The notes below the pieces were generated by a model. The model saw only the letters and a list, made by a program, of their open reading frames with translations. It made no database searches and was not told the DNA's origin. Positions 2,993 through 11,627 of a stretch of DNA of 11,662 nucleotides are shown here, in pieces; within the stretch, counting starts at the first letter, position 1, and each line of letters begins with the position of its first letter. Origin of the DNA: Candidatus Uhrbacteria bacterium (GTDB lineage: Bacteria > Patescibacteriota > Patescibacteriia > UBA9934 > UBA10169); assembly GCA_003505155.1 (NCBI GenBank), contig DNYJ01000030.1, positions 39,374-51,035 of the forward strand, in the 5' to 3' direction. Both the position numbers and the translations under genes were made by a program.

Positions 2993-4830
2993 TGCACCTC
3001 CTTTTGCTTATGTCTTCCACGGATTATCTTCACGCCATGCGGCATTCCGCGGCTCATGTGCTGGCCGCCGCCGTGCAACATCTCTATCCCGACGTCAAGC
3101 TCGGCGTCGGTCCTGTCATTGAAAACGGATTCTTTTACGACGTCATGATTCCGAGCCACACGCTCGTAGAAGAGGATCTCAAGGCCATTCAAAAAGAGAT
3201 GCAGAGGATCATCAACAAGGCTGTTGATTTTCGTCGAGAGGAAATGTCGCTTGACGAGGCGATGGCGTTTTTCGGCGAGCGCGGGCAGACGTTTAAGGTT
3301 GAGCTCTTAAAGGATCTTAAGGAACGAGGCACGACAAAAATTTCTGCCGAGGAGCTTCAAGACGTCGGCCCTTCGGCAGATTCGACAGGCTCACTGCAGG
3401 CAAGCTCAGGACAGGTGGAAACGATCTCGATCTATCACACGGGAGATTTTGTTGATCTGTGTCGGGGTCCTCATGTGGCAAACAGCAGGGAGATCGGCGC
3501 GGTGAGGCTCACAAAGTTGGCCGGAGCGTACTGGCGCGGGAAGGCGGAGAACGAACAGATGCAGCGCATTTATGGATTGGCTTTTGAGACGAAGGAGGAG
3601 CTTGACGCGTATCTCAAGATGCTTGAGGAAGCGAAAAAGCGCGATCATCGAAAGTTGGGTGCCGAGCTTGATCTCTTTGCTTTCTCCGATCTTGTCGGCC
3701 CGGGCCTCCCCCTCTTTACCCCCAAAGGGACAGTGATTCGTCACCTACTCGAGGATTTTGTCTGGTCACTCATGAAGCCCTACGGCTATAGCCGCGTGAA
3801 TATTCCTCACATGGCCAAGGCTGACCTCTACAAGACAAGCGGGCACTGGGACAAGTTTGCTGACGATATCTTTCACATCTCGAGCAAGAAGAGTGATGAT
3901 GCCTTTGTCATGAAGCCGATGAACTGCCCGCATCACACGCAGATCTACGCCTCACGTCCGCGTTCCTACCGTGATCTTCCTCTGCGGTATTCCGAGGTCA
4001 CGACGGTGTACCGCGACGAGAATACGGGCCAGCTTCAAGGTCTCTCCCGCGTGCGTTCGATCACGCAGGATGACGCGCATGTGTTTTGCCGTCCCGATCA
4101 GGTTATGGACGAGTGCCGCGCGATTTATGAAATCATCAAGGCGTTTTACGCGAAGTTCGGCATGCCTTTGAACGCTCGACTTTCGCTTTCGGATTCGGCA
4201 CAACCGGAAAAATATCTCGGCGGGCGGGAAGTCTGGGAGAGGTCGGAAGAAATCTTGCGAGGCCTCTTGAAGGAGTTTGGTCTTGCGTATGCGGAGGCGG
4301 TTGGCGAGGCGGCATTCTACGGTCCCAAGATTGATTTTATTGCCAAAGATGCGATCGGACGCGAGTGGCAACTTGCCACCATTCAGCTCGACTTTAACTT
4401 GCCGGAGCGCTTCAAGCTCGAGTATGCCAATTCCGACGGAGAAAAGAAACGGCCGGTGATGATCCATCGCGCGATCTCGGGTTCGCTCGAGCGGTTCATG
4501 GGCGTGTTGATCGAGCATTACGCCGGAGCGTTCCCTCTCTGGCTTGCTCCCGTGCAGGTTATCTTGGCTTCCGTTGGGGAAAACCACATGAAGTTTGTCG
4601 AGCATCTTGCTCGAGAGCTTTCGGAAGCAGGCGTGCGCGTGGAAGCTGACGTGTCAAGCGACACGATCGGCGCGAAAGTGCGCAAGGCGGCGAAGCAAAA
4701 GATTCCGTGGACGATTGTTGTGGGAGATAAGGAAATAGGAGGCGAGGACTTTCAGGTGAACGTGTTCGGCGCGCAGGAAAAGCTCTCGCTTTCAAAATCC
4801 GAACTCATCCGTCAATCTCTTGAATCTTGA
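2989..4830 (+). CDS. thrS: Threonyl-tRNA synthetase lacking the TGS domain
   Basis: This enzyme charges tRNA-Thr with threonine in the cytoplasm (class II synthetase). The editing domain is present: HSAAH (His18, His22) and CRGPH (Cys158, His162) match the HxxxH and CxxxH editing-site pairs. The catalytic core has class II motif 2 (YRDENTG, Arg342) and the zinc ligands Cys313 (MNCPHH), His364 (DDAHVFC) and His493 (MIHRAI), spaced much as in E. coli. The anticodon-binding domain (WLAPVQV to the end) is complete. The N-terminal TGS domain of about 60 residues is missing: the protein begins almost directly at the editing domain. There are 613 residues from the ATG at 2989, which overlaps the upstream stop by 4 bp. 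The ATG at 3010 (MSSTDYLH) is an equally plausible start, because the extra MMHLLLL is unlike the family. No Shine-Dalgarno sequence is seen. About a dozen extra residues (around 128-142) come from a repeat-like insertion. Confidence 0.96.
   Translation: MMHLLLLMSSTDYLHAMRHSAAHVLAAAVQHLYPDVKLGVGPVIENGFFYDVMIPSHTLVEEDLKAIQKEMQRIINKAVDFRREEMSLDEAMAFFGERGQTFKVELLKDLKERGTTKISAEELQDVGPSADSTGSLQASSGQVETISIYHTGDFVDLCRGPHVANSREIGAVRLTKLAGAYWRGKAENEQMQRIYGLAFETKEELDAYLKMLEEAKKRDHRKLGAELDLFAFSDLVGPGLPLFTPKGTVIRHLLEDFVWSLMKPYGYSRVNIPHMAKADLYKTSGHWDKFADDIFHISSKKSDDAFVMKPMNCPHHTQIYASRPRSYRDLPLRYSEVTTVYRDENTGQLQGLSRVRSITQDDAHVFCRPDQVMDECRAIYEIIKAFYAKFGMPLNARLSLSDSAQPEKYLGGREVWERSEEILRGLLKEFGLAYAEAVGEAAFYGPKIDFIAKDAIGREWQLATIQLDFNLPERFKLEYANSDGEKKRPVMIHRAISGSLERFMGVLIEHYAGAFPLWLAPVQVILASVGENHMKFVEHLARELSEAGVRVEADVSSDTIGAKVRKAAKQKIPWTIVVGDKEIGGEDFQVNVFGAQEKLSLSKSELIRQSLES
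3371..3415 (+). repeat. Repeat-like segment inserted in frame within thrS
   Basis: Within thrS, between the conserved KVELLKDL and YHTGDFVDLCRGPH blocks, the DNA reads as overlapping variants of one motif: CTTCGGCAGA, TTCGACAGGCTCA, then AAGCTCAGGACAGG. From memory, the strings TTCGACAGGCTCA and AAGCTCAGGACAGG belong to short interspersed repeats found in intergenic DNA of many bacteria. Here they are translated as a Ser/Gly/Ala-rich stretch (SADSTGSLQASSGQ) in a place where relatives have a short linker. The insertion boundaries and repeat identity are inferred. Confidence 0.5.
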
Positions 4831-4832
4831 AC

Positions 4833-4884
4833 CCTGAACGAATGACAAAACTACCCGATCGGGTAGTTTTGTCATTCGTTCAGG
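4833..4884. terminator. 52-bp perfect palindrome, bidirectional terminator between convergent genes
   Basis: Bases 4833-4858 are exactly complementary to 4859-4884, centred on CCCGA|TCGGG, and the pairing stops at both ends (C against C). The inner hairpin CTACCC-GATC-GGGTAG is followed by TTTTG on both strands, as expected of an intrinsic terminator working in both directions. It starts 2 bases after the thrS stop, and the stop of the convergent minus-strand gene (4880-4882) lies inside the right arm. The perfect 26-bp arms are longer than a terminator needs. Confidence 0.85.
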
Positions 4885-6166: not shown

Positions 6167-6176
6167 TTCGAGCGTT

Positions 6177-7151
6177 ATGGATTTGCTTAAGATTATCGCA
6201 ATTGTGGGTCCTACTGCAAGCGGGAAGAGCGTGTGCGGGGTTAAGATTGCACGAGCGTTCAATGGCGAGGTGATTTGCGTGGACTCGCGGACGGTGTACA
6301 AAGGGATGGATATCGGAACAGCGAAGGTTAGAAACTCCGAACCCAAGCACTGGGGCGTTGATCTTGCAAGCCCCGACGAGGAGTACACGGTGGCCATGTT
6401 TCAGGAATATGCGCAGAAGAAAATTGAGGAGATTGCAAAGCGAGGAAAATTGCCGGTGCTTGTAGGCGGGACGGGGCTTTGGATGGATGCGGTTGTTGAT
6501 AATCTCTCGTTTCCCAACGTGCCGCCGGACGATCGCATTCGATCTGAACTTGAGGCGCGCGAGGTGGATGATCTCGCGCGGGAGTATCTAAAGCGTGATC
6601 CGGAAGGTGCCGATTTCGTTGACATAAAAAACAAGCGCCGGTTAATCCGAGCTCTTGAAGTGTGTCGTGTGACAGGAAAGACTTTCTCGGAGCTTCGTCA
6701 GAAAGGCCATGCGCTCTACGATGCGCTTTGGATCGGCATGTCCGGCAAAGCCGGATCCGGCTCTGCCGGAGACGTTTCGCGCGAGGAGCTCGACAAGAGG
6801 ATTGATAACCGGGTCGATGAGATGATCGCAGACGGTCTCGTCGAAGAAGTTCGTCGGCTCAAAGATCTGTACGGTTGCGATATTCCCTCAATGTCGGGCA
6901 TCGGGTATCGAGAGCTCTGTACCTTTTTCGATAAAATTAGTAACGACGTTACTGAATCTTCAATAATTACAGGGGTTTATAGTAACGTCGTTACTGGTAT
7001 GGGAATGTGTGAGGTGATTGAGATGATCAAAACAAACACCCGCCGCTTTGCTCGTCGTCAGAGACGCTGGTTCAAGCGGCGGGAGGAAATCGTGTGGGTG
7101 AAAGATTGTGGAGAGGCGATGGCGGCGGTTCGGTTATTTTTGTCGTCGTGA
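6177..7151 (+). CDS. miaA: tRNA dimethylallyltransferase with two in-frame insertions
   Basis: MiaA adds a dimethylallyl group to N6 of adenosine 37 in tRNAs that read UNN codons. The P-loop is GPTASGKS (residues 11-18), followed by VDSRTVYKGMDIGTAK (Asp36), LVGGTGLWMDAVVD, NKRRLIRALEVCRVTGK, SREELDKRIDNRVDEMI, SGIGYREL and TRRFARRQRRWFKR, in the family order. The length is 324 residues. Two segments are absent from relatives: residues 189-198, encoded by a 30-bp palindrome, and residues 255-273, encoded by a 57-bp nested-palindrome element. Without them the protein would be 295 residues and the local spacing normal. Both lie away from the P-loop, so the enzyme is probably active. The ATG at 6177 fits MDLLKIIAIVGPT and the -10 box; the ATG at 6162 is less likely. 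The 3' end overlaps convergent gatB by 18 bp. Confidence 0.95.
   Translation: MDLLKIIAIVGPTASGKSVCGVKIARAFNGEVICVDSRTVYKGMDIGTAKVRNSEPKHWGVDLASPDEEYTVAMFQEYAQKKIEEIAKRGKLPVLVGGTGLWMDAVVDNLSFPNVPPDDRIRSELEAREVDDLAREYLKRDPEGADFVDIKNKRRLIRALEVCRVTGKTFSELRQKGHALYDALWIGMSGKAGSGSAGDVSREELDKRIDNRVDEMIADGLVEEVRRLKDLYGCDIPSMSGIGYRELCTFFDKISNDVTESSIITGVYSNVVTGMGMCEVIEMIKTNTRRFARRQRRWFKRREEIVWVKDCGEAMAAVRLFLSS
6741..6770. repeat. 30-bp near-perfect palindrome inserted in frame in miaA
   Basis: Two tandem 15-nt units of the form TCCGGC-nnn-GCCGGA (centres AAA and TCT) together make a 30-bp palindrome in which 14 of 15 base pairs match. The exception is A6748 against C6763. The segment starts exactly on a codon boundary of miaA and spans 10 codons (SGKAGSGSAG). 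Removing it joins LWIGM to DVSREELDKRI, which is the ordinary MiaA sequence pattern. Confidence 0.8.
6939..6995. repeat. Nested-palindrome element, copy A (inside miaA)
   Basis: The left arm AGTAACGACGTTACT (6939-6953) and right arm AGTAACGTCGTTACT (6981-6995) are exact reverse complements. Each is also a perfect palindrome around a single central base (A on the left, T on the right). The 27-nt loop contains TCAATaaTTAcAGGGGTT, which matches the loop of the element at 11567-11627 at 15 of 18 positions. The element is 57 nt, begins on a miaA codon boundary and adds 19 residues (255-273). Without it, the stretch from GYREL to TRR is 21 residues; from memory it is about 20 in E. coli MiaA. Confidence 0.8.
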
Positions 7152-11106: not shown

Positions 11107-11544
11107 TCATGATCCCGTTGTGCCGAAACCGCCGCGGTTGGTGGCTTCGAGTTCGGCGACTTCTTCGAATATGGCTTTCGCGATGGGGACGATGAGACCT
11201 TGCATCACACGTTCGCCCTTCAAGACGGTATAAGGCTCGGAACCGATATTGTAGAGGTAGGCGTAGAGCTGGTCGTTCGGTCCGCAGTAATCTTGATCAA
11301 TCACGCCGACGCCGTTCCCAAGCTGGAGGCCTTTTTTGGCGTTGCTCGATCGAGGGAAGAGGAGGAGCGTATGGCCGTCCGGAACGCAGACGACAAGGCC
11401 GGTTGCAAAGGCTCGACGTTCTCCTGGTGCGAGCGTCCCGTCCTCGATGACCGCAACGTCAAATGCGCACGCGCCTTGTGTTTTGTATTCCGGCATGGGA
11501 ACGTCGGGAGAGAGGCGTTTGAATCGGACAGGGAGGTTGGGCAT
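11107..11544 (-). CDS. dut: dUTP diphosphatase (trimeric dUTPase)
   Basis: Dut hydrolyses dUTP to dUMP and diphosphate. This keeps uracil out of DNA and supplies the dTMP precursor. All five trimeric-family motifs are in order: I ACAFDV (residues 25-30), II PRSSNAKKGL (64-73), III NGVGVIDQDYCG (77-88, with the catalytic Asp83 and Tyr86), IV GERVMQGLIVP (110-120) and V RGGFGTTG (137-144). The length of 145 residues is typical. Motif III continues PNDQL instead of the usual EIxV, a modest deviation. I chose the ATG at 11544 because it sits 9 bases after an extended -10 box and gives MPNLPVRFKRL. The extension to 11574 would include the promoter. It is the first visible gene of the minus-strand train dut, tmk, two membrane genes, gatB. 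Confidence 0.96.
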   Translation of the reverse strand: MPNLPVRFKRLSPDVPMPEYKTQGACAFDVAVIEDGTLAPGERRAFATGLVVCVPDGHTLLLFPRSSNAKKGLQLGNGVGVIDQDYCGPNDQLYAYLYNIGSEPYTVLKGERVMQGLIVPIAKAIFEEVAELEATNRGGFGTTGS

Positions 11545-11566: not shown

Positions 11567-11627
11567 TCCACCACCAGGTGCTGGATAAATCAATGTTTAT
11601 AGGGGTTCTCCAGCACCTGGTGGTGGA
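11567..11627. repeat. Nested-palindrome element, copy B (upstream of dut)
   Basis: The left arm TCCACCACCAGGTGCTGGA (11567-11585) and right arm TCCAGCACCTGGTGGTGGA (11609-11627) are exact reverse complements over 19 nt. Each arm is itself a palindrome around its central base (A left, T right) with a single C/C or G/G mismatch. The 23-nt loop carries TCAATgtTTAtAGGGGTT, sharing 15 of 18 positions with the loop at 6939-6995 although the arms are unrelated. No T-run follows on either strand, so it is not a standard terminator. Its edge is 4 bases from the dut extended -10 box. Confidence 0.8.

What the first reader, a model, noticed from the sequence alone, without database searches (positions are those of the whole stretch)
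6939..6995. Two-copy element with variable, self-palindromic arms and a conserved loop (copy A in miaA, copy B at 11567-11627)
Both copies consist of two exactly complementary arms around a loop with TCAATnnTTAnAGGGGTT (15 of 18 positions identical). The arms differ completely between copies (AGTAACG-centred against CACCAGGTG-centred), yet pairing is perfect in both, and every arm is also a palindrome about one central base (A in the left arm, T in the right). Stem sequence varies while pairing is kept and loop sequence is kept, which is the signature of selection on a folded ssDNA or RNA shape or on protein recognition of the loop. The arms could fold as one long hairpin or as two small ones, giving two alternative states. 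I know of no named family with this exact plan. A non-autonomous mobile element is one reading, a target for a hairpin-binding protein another.
Basis: partly seen in the sequence, partly recalled or inferred. Interest (0 to 1): 0.88.

Follow-up and report, generated by a model that had tools for sequence, protein, structure and literature searches.

The report
Paired-hairpin mobile repeats with swapped arms
In a small bacterium of the Uhrbacteria group, a short DNA element made of two hairpins around a nearly fixed linker is scattered over the genome and is probably moved by single-strand transposase-like enzymes, each with its own hairpin sequence; one copy sits in frame inside a tRNA-modification gene and gives that protein about 20 extra amino acids.

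Summary
The source genome holds 19 full-length ones: two short palindromes, centres 42 nt apart, around a linker TCAATGTTTATAGG (exact in 14 of 19). Arms fall into classes. Each class matches the palindromes on both sides of one of the genome's RAYT-like Y1 transposase genes (6 of 6; at C15 the 5' side is rearranged). The predicted fold of a relative best matches REP-bound RAYT, 4er8.

It is a REPIN/BIME-like, non-autonomous single-strand transposon system without the defining GT[AG]G foot (0 of 38 feet), conserved 'inside out': linker kept, palindromes variable. Four of 19 copies have arms of two classes, so two small hairpins fit better than one long one.

Copy A encodes about 20 MiaA residues that none of 19 order relatives has. 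A sister-lineage MiaA (P0004) has an equally long insert at the same place; its peptide fits the same linker with other palindromic arms. Cleavage and transposition are inferred, not shown.

The parts
6939..6953 (+). Copy A, left palindromic arm (7+A+7), the class that flanks the RAYT gene of contig C9
   Evidence: same class at C9:3799-3859 and 4578-4638
6954..6980 (+). Copy A, linker; six differences from the C9 copies of its class, none in the arms
6981..6995 (+). Copy A, right palindromic arm (7+T+7)
6174..7151 (+). miaA (IPP transferase, PF01715), open across copy A; residues about 257-276 (window 6942-7001) have no counterpart in the 19 order relatives aligned
11567..11585 (+). Copy B, left arm, the class that flanks the RAYT gene of contig C33
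11586..11608 (+). Copy B, linker with TCAATGTTTATAGGGG
11609..11627 (+). Copy B, right arm
11107..11544 (-). dut-like ORF; copy B lies just upstream of its likely ATG start (ORF, start and the name dut by my reading, not by a family search)

Best explanation
Copies A and B are non-autonomous REPIN/BIME-like elements of a RAYT (TnpA-REP-related, Y1/HuH) system in a Patescibacterium of the order that holds Candidatus Uhrbacteria. Each element is two inverted copies of a short palindrome around a nearly fixed linker. SHOWN by sequence: many dispersed copies; arm classes; each RAYT-like gene flanked by its own class; one linker across four paralogous RAYTs and their arm classes; mixed-arm copies; an in-frame copy in miaA absent from the relatives aligned. 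INFERRED: when the DNA is single-stranded each palindrome folds into a hairpin bound by its cognate RAYT; the linker, or a base pairing with it, sets where strands are cut and joined; copies spread by strand transfer into single-stranded DNA; arm exchange happens at the linker. Copy A was tolerated because it falls in a loop of MiaA that accepts inserts and is a multiple of three with an open frame.
For: 19 full copies by pattern and covariance model (the model was built from those 19). Six of 6 RAYT-like genes in the genome are flanked by their own arm class (C35, C9, C33, C2 twice, C15 with a rearranged 5' side). Four of these RAYTs form a 100/100 clade, each has an exact TCAATGTTTATAGG on at least one side, and their arms differ. 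Exact TCAATGTTTRYAGG lies by RAYTs in 6 of 124 distinct loci against 0.004 expected from composition. In genus g13 closely similar linkers sit beside two other arm classes. All 35 named relatives in A3 match NF047646 REP_Tyr_transpos at E up to 0.01. The AlphaFold model of the L085 RAYT (pLDDT 86.7) best matches 4er8, RAYT bound to a REP hairpin (Foldseek E 2e-5, probability 1.00, TM 0.49 by query and 0.66 by target). Pair counts on A2: two-hairpin structure 94.0% paired, covariation 0.655 against 0.261 in shuffles. MiaA insert coincides with copy A.
Against: No movement or cleavage was observed, and no empty site at DNA level: the genus has one genome. The GT[AG]G foot of REPs is absent. NF047646 scores are 18-35 bits for 4 of the 5 own RAYTs scanned and none for the fifth, against a cut-off of 80. 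The linker is not general: G001, same family, has RAYTs but no model match, and the linker label needs 7 changes on the RAYT tree, though that label allowed 2 mismatches and includes likely chance matches. One pair measure, further pair types, is lower than in shuffles for the two-hairpin structure (18 against 20.4). Some copies (C20, C34, C12:27021) have decayed arms. Several class-1 copies share longer flanks with a duplicated gene family, so part of the copy number may be gene duplication.
Confidence: 0.82

Rival explanations
1. The hairpins are RNA-level elements (terminators, mRNA stabilisers or attenuators) kept for gene expression, unrelated to transposition.
For: Strong folding; many copies lie near gene ends, as REPs of other bacteria do.
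Against: Copies lie upstream as well as downstream of genes; one copy lies inside a coding sequence; each RAYT-like gene carries its own arm class on both sides, and the linker is kept across classes.
Confidence: 0.08
2. The elements are site-specific recombination sites (attC- or Xer-like) that shuffle genes, such as the repeated ~575-aa gene family beside class-1 copies.
For: Variable stems with a conserved short core resemble attC in kind (recalled); class-1 copies lie between or beside tandem paralogues.
Against: Arm classes go with Y1 transposase genes; the class-2 and class-3 copies are not next to that gene family. A tyrosine-recombinase integrase was not searched for.
Confidence: 0.05
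3. Copies are fossils of a domesticated RAYT system; the elements no longer move, and copy A is a neutral relic.
For: Only about 20 copies; six linker differences in copy A; decayed copies at C20 and C34.
Against: 94.0% of arm cells still pair; five own RAYT ORFs aligned keep the HuH and Y residues; arms of copy A have 0 changes in 30 nt against 6 in 27 in its linker, compared with the C9 copies (Fisher p 0.008).
Confidence: 0.25
4. P0004 and the window acquired their MiaA inserts independently at the same tolerant loop, so no arm replacement took place.
For: The loop takes other inserts: 19 of the 120 listed homologues besides these two have longer segments, and the one checked at DNA level (L057) shows no palindrome there. 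Three other peptide windows of 35,975 score as palindromic as P0004's, two of them in inserts of this same loop (P0036, P0037).
Against: Same insert length (20 aa), same linker offset and frame, and the two proteins are sisters (88/80; 89% of bootstrap trees).
Confidence: 0.4

Closest known systems
REPIN / BIME (REP doublets) with RAYT, as in Pseudomonas fluorescens SBW25 and E. coli
   Same: Two inverted palindromes with a short spacer, dispersed, next to RAYT genes; each RAYT with its own palindrome class; Y1/HuH fold
   Different: No GT[AG]G foot; spacer conserved and palindromes variable between classes, the reverse of SBW25 REPINs, where passages of PMC3116915 say the spacer is less conserved than the REPs
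TIRtron / TIRYT (RAYT-like genes flanked by inverted repeats without GTAG; PMC3733652 passages)
   Same: RAYT-like gene flanked by non-GTAG, partly self-complementary inverted repeats that also occur as dimers elsewhere
   Different: No copy in A2 fits the GGGGWSAS motif by inspection; fixed 42-nt spacing and a shared linker
TnpAY1 subclass 2.6 systems (mostly Bacteroidetes; PMC6006769 sections)
   Same: Atypical flanking hairpins without GT[AG]G, with copies elsewhere in the genome
   Different: Other phylum; placement against subclass 2.6 proteins not tested here
Rickettsia palindromic elements and REPs inside genes (PMC3733652, PMC6006769 passages)
   Same: Palindromic element read in frame within a protein gene, 20-30 residues
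   Different: Here tied to cognate RAYT paralogues and a conserved linker

Membership tests
REPIN/BIME of a REPtron | Two palindromic units in inverted orientation with a short spacer | tested here: met
   A2, 19 copies, arm centres 42 nt apart
REPIN/BIME of a REPtron | RAYT gene flanked by its own palindrome class | tested here: met
   6 of 6 RAYT-like genes of the genome, C15 with a rearranged 5' side. Wider set: 125 of 133 RAYT loci share an element between their flanks above the 99th percentile (29) of 599 cross-locus controls, whose maximum was 47; the 133 include repeated records of the same genomes, and some shared stretches are plain duplications, not palindromes
REPIN/BIME of a REPtron | 5' GT[AG]G tetranucleotide at the hairpin foot | tested here: not met
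   0 of 38 feet in own copies; 8 of 428 feet at 124 RAYT loci, about 10 expected
REPIN/BIME of a REPtron | Dispersed, mostly extragenic copies | tested here: inconclusive
   1 of 19 lies in an identified gene (miaA); the other 18 I judged to lie at or between ends of genes from the ORF listing only; ORFs spanning some of them were judged spurious, without a family search
REPIN/BIME of a REPtron | Cleavage and strand transfer by the cognate RAYT | not testable with these tools
   needs biochemistry
RAYT (TnpA-REP) | Y1/HuH fold with conserved HxH and tyrosine | tested here: met
   Invariant H85, H87, Y145, N149 in the 35 relatives of A3; best fold match of the L085 model 4er8. Own RAYTs were not modelled
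RAYT (TnpA-REP) | Score above the curated NF047646 cut-off (80 bits) | tested here: not met
   18-35 bits for 4 of 5 own proteins, no hit for the fifth; L085 25.8 bits, and 35 of 35 relatives match at E up to 0.01, other bit scores not shown
IS200/IS605 insertion sequence | Transposase and both subterminal hairpins move as one unit with guide sequences | tested here: inconclusive
   RAYTs are flanked by elements, but the elements also occur alone; no guide pairing identified
TIRtron | Flanking TIRs with GGGGWSAS motif | tested here: not met
   By inspection of A2, none of 19 copies fits; the motif is from PMC3733652 passages, which also list TIRs without it
Integron attC site | Integron integrase and RYYYAAC/GTTRRRY core sites | not tested
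   integrase not searched; motif recalled

The most novel reading that the evidence does not exclude
The arms are exchangeable specificity cassettes around a fixed catalytic linker. RAYT paralogues diverge in the hairpin they read while the cutting and joining site in the linker stays the same, so arms can be swapped in place, giving the mixed-arm copies and an arm replacement inside miaA between sister lineages, with reading frame kept.
Probability: 0.35. Interest if true: 0.78.

Novelty: new variant of a known kind. Interest (0 to 1): 0.6.

Why it matters
In the REP systems described in the papers seen, palindromes define the class and a GT[AG]G foot guides cutting. Here is a lineage of reduced genomes where that foot is missing, the linker is kept, and six RAYT genes in one genome each have their own palindrome. 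That makes two open points testable: what replaces GT[AG]G as the guide, and how new REP classes arise. The miaA copy gives a natural experiment on one locus: an in-frame insert whose gain can be placed on a tree.

Tried and rejected
Two-copy element: rejected, 19 copies. One long hairpin as the only selected shape: weakened by mixed-arm copies. Monophyly of the linker on the RAYT tree: not found (its label allowed 2 mismatches and caught likely chance matches such as L137, L143, L134, L026; exact matches are only L158/L010, L011, L009, L192, L167/L085, L205). Sequence-only PDB search with the 5 own RAYTs: 0 hits at E up to 1; with 35 relatives: 4er8 first, at a non-significant E 0.09. TTATCCACA (DnaA-box-like, consensus from PMC6006769 passages) as part of the system: enriched by RAYT genes in noncoding DNA, 11 of 17,264 against 4 of 29,948 positions, p 0.005, but present in only 13 of 124 loci; left open. 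GTAACG-type palindromes at C6:30938 and C6:33572 look like repeated coding sequence without linker and were not counted. A single class-1 arm at C23:11152 without linker was not counted. Other MiaA loop inserts (P0036, P0037) score palindromic at peptide level; no DNA; not claimed. The L057 insert is not palindromic.

Limits: pair counts use copies found partly by their palindromes, so they lean towards the structure. One search used stricter filters because of the number of genomes; its weak matches in G022, G047 and G051 lack a full two-arm element as far as I read them. The control compares different loci and does not correct for base composition within a locus. One search scored 8000 candidates and listed 120 of 430 proteins; searches use 12 and 120 of these, and the tree uses 24. 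One search aligned 19 of the 37 other genomes with a MiaA match (only 20 loci were fetched, one of them the window's own). A3 holds 35 of the 62 complete named RAYTs listed.

Full report
WHAT IS THERE. Both copies are as described. Copy A: 15-nt arms 6939-6953 and 6981-6995, 27-nt loop. Copy B: 19-nt arms 11567-11585 and 11609-11627, 23-nt loop. Each folds far better than shuffles as ssDNA (z -5.4 and -7.2; 0 of 200). Perfect arms of 13 nt or more at such spacing appear in 1 of 300 shuffles of the window. Copy B's arms are exact complements of each other but each is an imperfect palindrome.

HOW MANY COPIES. The window is G000:C12:39374-51035 of a 976-kb genome in 43 contigs. A pattern search gave 30 hits at up to 3 mismatches, against 17 for the reversed control. 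In the stretches I fetched, 19 places have the linker with an arm on each side; the weak hits outside those stretches were checked only through the model. A covariance model built from those 19 finds all 19 at E < 1e-9 over the whole genome. Its other 14 matches there are 10 reverse-strand echoes of the same copies, three places of a sixth arm class at C6 and C15, and a degenerate copy at the end of C43; a fourth class-6 copy is at C15:5258. All 19 have arm centres 42 nt apart.

ARM CLASSES AND RAYT GENES. Class names here are mine: 1 TTGTCACG[A/T]CGTGACAA, 2 CCAGCACC[A/T]GGTGCTGG, 3 AGTAACG[A/T]CGTTACT, 4 GCAGGAGCT[A/T]AGCTCCTGC, 5 CGTTAGCT[A/T]AGCTAACG, 6 TACGTATCTAGGATAAGTATT. A Y1_Tnp search found 8 places in the genome and a RAYT profile 9. 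Six are RAYT-like genes of about 230-245 aa at C35, C9, C33, C2 (two) and C15, and each is flanked on both sides by its own class: 1, 3, 2, 4, 5 and 6; at C15 the 5' side is a rearranged array of class-6 pieces. The remaining three, at C32, C5 and C20, match Y1_Tnp better and the RAYT profile only in part; they were not studied. Copy A has the C9 class, copy B the C33 class.

LINKER. Columns 24-37 of alignment A2 read TCAATGTTTATAGG exactly in 14 of 19 copies while the arms change class; copy A is among the five exceptions. The C33, C15, C35 and C9 RAYTs form a clade with 100/100 support, and each has this linker exactly on at least one side, beside different arms. The two C2 RAYTs belong elsewhere on the tree and their dimer has another linker. 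Outside this genome the linker (as TCAATGTTTACAGG) lies by the RAYT of G013 (the same protein as named record L085, Candidatus Uhrbacteria) with arms CCCGGCTCT[G/C]AGAGCCGGG, with one more copy on another contig (C29), and by the RAYTs of G028 exactly and G069 with 2 mismatches, with arms GGACGACG.... In genus g13 other genomes (G033, G064, G065) carry similar linkers (TCAATGTTTACGG, TCAATGTTCACAGG or AAGG, TCAATGTTTTCGG) with arms CCCCGCCACTTAGTGGCGGGG, the two G064 copies with one arm only. Exact TCAATGTTTRYAGG occurs in 6 of 124 distinct RAYT loci, 0.004 expected. Against generality: the model matched in 8 of 72 genomes of the order at E up to 0.1, some of these weak, and not in G001 of the same family; the other 118 of 124 RAYT loci lack the exact linker, and many have single palindromes.

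TWO HAIRPINS OR ONE. On A2 (18 distinct rows) the two-hairpin structure pairs in 94.0% of cells, covariation 0.655 (shuffled 0.261); the long hairpin pairs in 86.4%, covariation 0.544 (shuffled 0.245). Further pair types were 18 against 20.4 in shuffles for the first and 29 against 25.3 for the second, so that one measure favours the long hairpin. The difference in pairing comes mainly from four copies with arms of two classes: C33:11310, C15:3411, C34:13950 (left arm decayed) and C12:27021. In the C15 copy a linker variant shared with a class-1 copy (C42) stays with the class-1 arm, so the switch there lies to its right, near AGGG; that is one case only.

THE PROTEIN. 35 of 35 named relatives in A3 match NF047646 REP_Tyr_transpos; the scores shown, for L085 and own proteins, are below the curated cut-off. 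N84, H85, H87, Y145 and N149 are invariant. The AlphaFold model of the L085 RAYT (mean pLDDT 86.7) best matches 4er8, the RAYT on a REP hairpin (Foldseek E 2.1e-5, probability 1.00, TM 0.49 by query, 0.66 by target), then IS608 and ISDra2 transposases. Own-genome RAYTs were not modelled. The GT[AG]G foot of classical REPs is absent: 0 of 38 feet in own copies, and 8 of 428 feet (about 10 expected) at 124 RAYT loci.

WIDER SET. Of 133 RAYT loci with both flanks, 125 share an element between 5' and 3' flank above the 99th percentile of 599 cross-locus comparisons. These 133 include repeated records of the same genome (124 distinct proteins), and some shared stretches are duplicated gene pieces. 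In 106 of 124 a palindrome with stem of 8 or more lies in the flanks (no shuffled control for that count).

COPY A IN miaA. Aligned with MiaA of 19 order relatives, the window's protein has 20 extra residues (257-276 of 325) where copy A lies; 18 relatives have nothing there and one (L057) a shorter unrelated insert. In a protein search 430 homologues passed, 120 listed; 92 of 120 have the short form, 7 a still shorter stretch, and 21 including the window's own have longer forms. Among these, P0004 has an insert of equal length with SMFMG at the place where the class-3 element codes for SMFIG, flanked by GVDDT and GDVDT, which fit palindromic arms of another sequence with one base off (the back-translation is mine). 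By best codon choice P0004's window pairs at 14 of 15 and 13 of 14 positions; 5 of 35,975 windows in the 120 proteins do as well on both: the window's, P0004's, two in inserts of the same loop (P0036, P0037) and one elsewhere (P0057). P0001 and P0004 are sisters to the exclusion of insert-free P0002 with 88/80 support. Copy A's arms are identical to the C9 copies while its linker differs at 6 of 27 positions (Fisher p 0.008), as expected if arms are younger than linker; selection on the arms would give the same picture. The DNA of P0004 was not available, so arm replacement is a proposal.

MECHANISM. Best reading: RAYT paralogues bind their palindrome as a hairpin in single-stranded DNA and cut and join at or near the linker, spreading the dimer and sometimes joining halves of different classes. 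The enzymatic basis is taken from work on E. coli, Stenotrophomonas and Marinomonas TnpA-REP (PMC8266576, abstract, outline and passages seen). Nothing here shows activity.

LITERATURE. Seen: PMC6006769 (abstract, outline, sections 12, 13, 25, passages), PMC8266576 (abstract, outline, passages), PMC3733652 (passages), PMC3686654 (passages), PMC3116915 (passages). Searches joining Patescibacteria, candidate phyla radiation, Uhrbacteria or Parcubacteria with REPIN, RAYT, REPtron, BIME, repetitive extragenic palindromic, palindromic transposase or tyrosine transposase listed no paper that by title and abstract describes such a system there (the listings of 38 and 94 show 20 of 36 and 15 of 34 papers); subscription journals are mostly not held. 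PMC3116915 describes SBW25 REPINs with conserved REPs and a less conserved spacer; here the reverse holds between classes.

VERDICT. A real, structured, multi-copy element; a new variant of a known kind (RAYT-linked palindrome dimers), with a kept linker, variable arms, no GT[AG]G foot and one in-frame copy in miaA.

Noticed in passing
window 6741-6770: Second palindromic in-frame insert in the same miaA: TCCGGCAAAGCCGGA followed by TCCGGCTCTGCCGGA, read SGKAGSGSAG, absent from the 11 MiaA relatives aligned. TCCGGCNNNGCCGGA occurs 16 times in the genome, 0 for the reversed control, four times as adjacent pairs; a gatA-like ORF (L011:6347-7834) carries a similar peptide.
   Followed up: partly
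L010, L013, L015, L016: Class-1 elements lie just upstream of, or between, members of a ~575-aa gene family (MSKTPNYD...), so element and gene may duplicate together.
   Followed up: no
L010, next to 3846-3906, and RAYT flanks in other genomes: TTATCCACA (DnaA-box-like) abuts class-1 arms and is enriched beside RAYT genes in noncoding DNA (11 of 17,264 against 4 of 29,948 positions, p 0.005).
   Followed up: partly
L026:3640-5480: Two RAYT genes in tandem, each with its own palindrome class; the stretch between them repeats the 3' end of the neighbouring gene, as if the unit had duplicated with host DNA.
   Followed up: no
MiaA homologues P0003 and P0007: Shorter insert SPVTGE at the same MiaA loop; its codons could also spell one palindrome. 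DNA not seen.
   Followed up: no
window 4833-4884: 26-nt perfect inverted repeat without loop just after the thrS-like ORF, facing a minus-strand ORF; probably a terminator.
   Followed up: no
window about 3378-3415: Repeat-like stretch CTTCGGCAGATTCGACAGGCTCACTGCAGGCAAGCTCAGGACAGG within the thrS-like ORF; it resembles a repeat I recall from other MAGs; not tested.
   Followed up: no
G019 C9:8189 and C24:55080 (L074, L076): TCAATGTTTACAGGG preceded by a single GACTTAGACA...TGTCTAAGTC hairpin and followed by a T run: half-elements in another family of the order.
   Followed up: no
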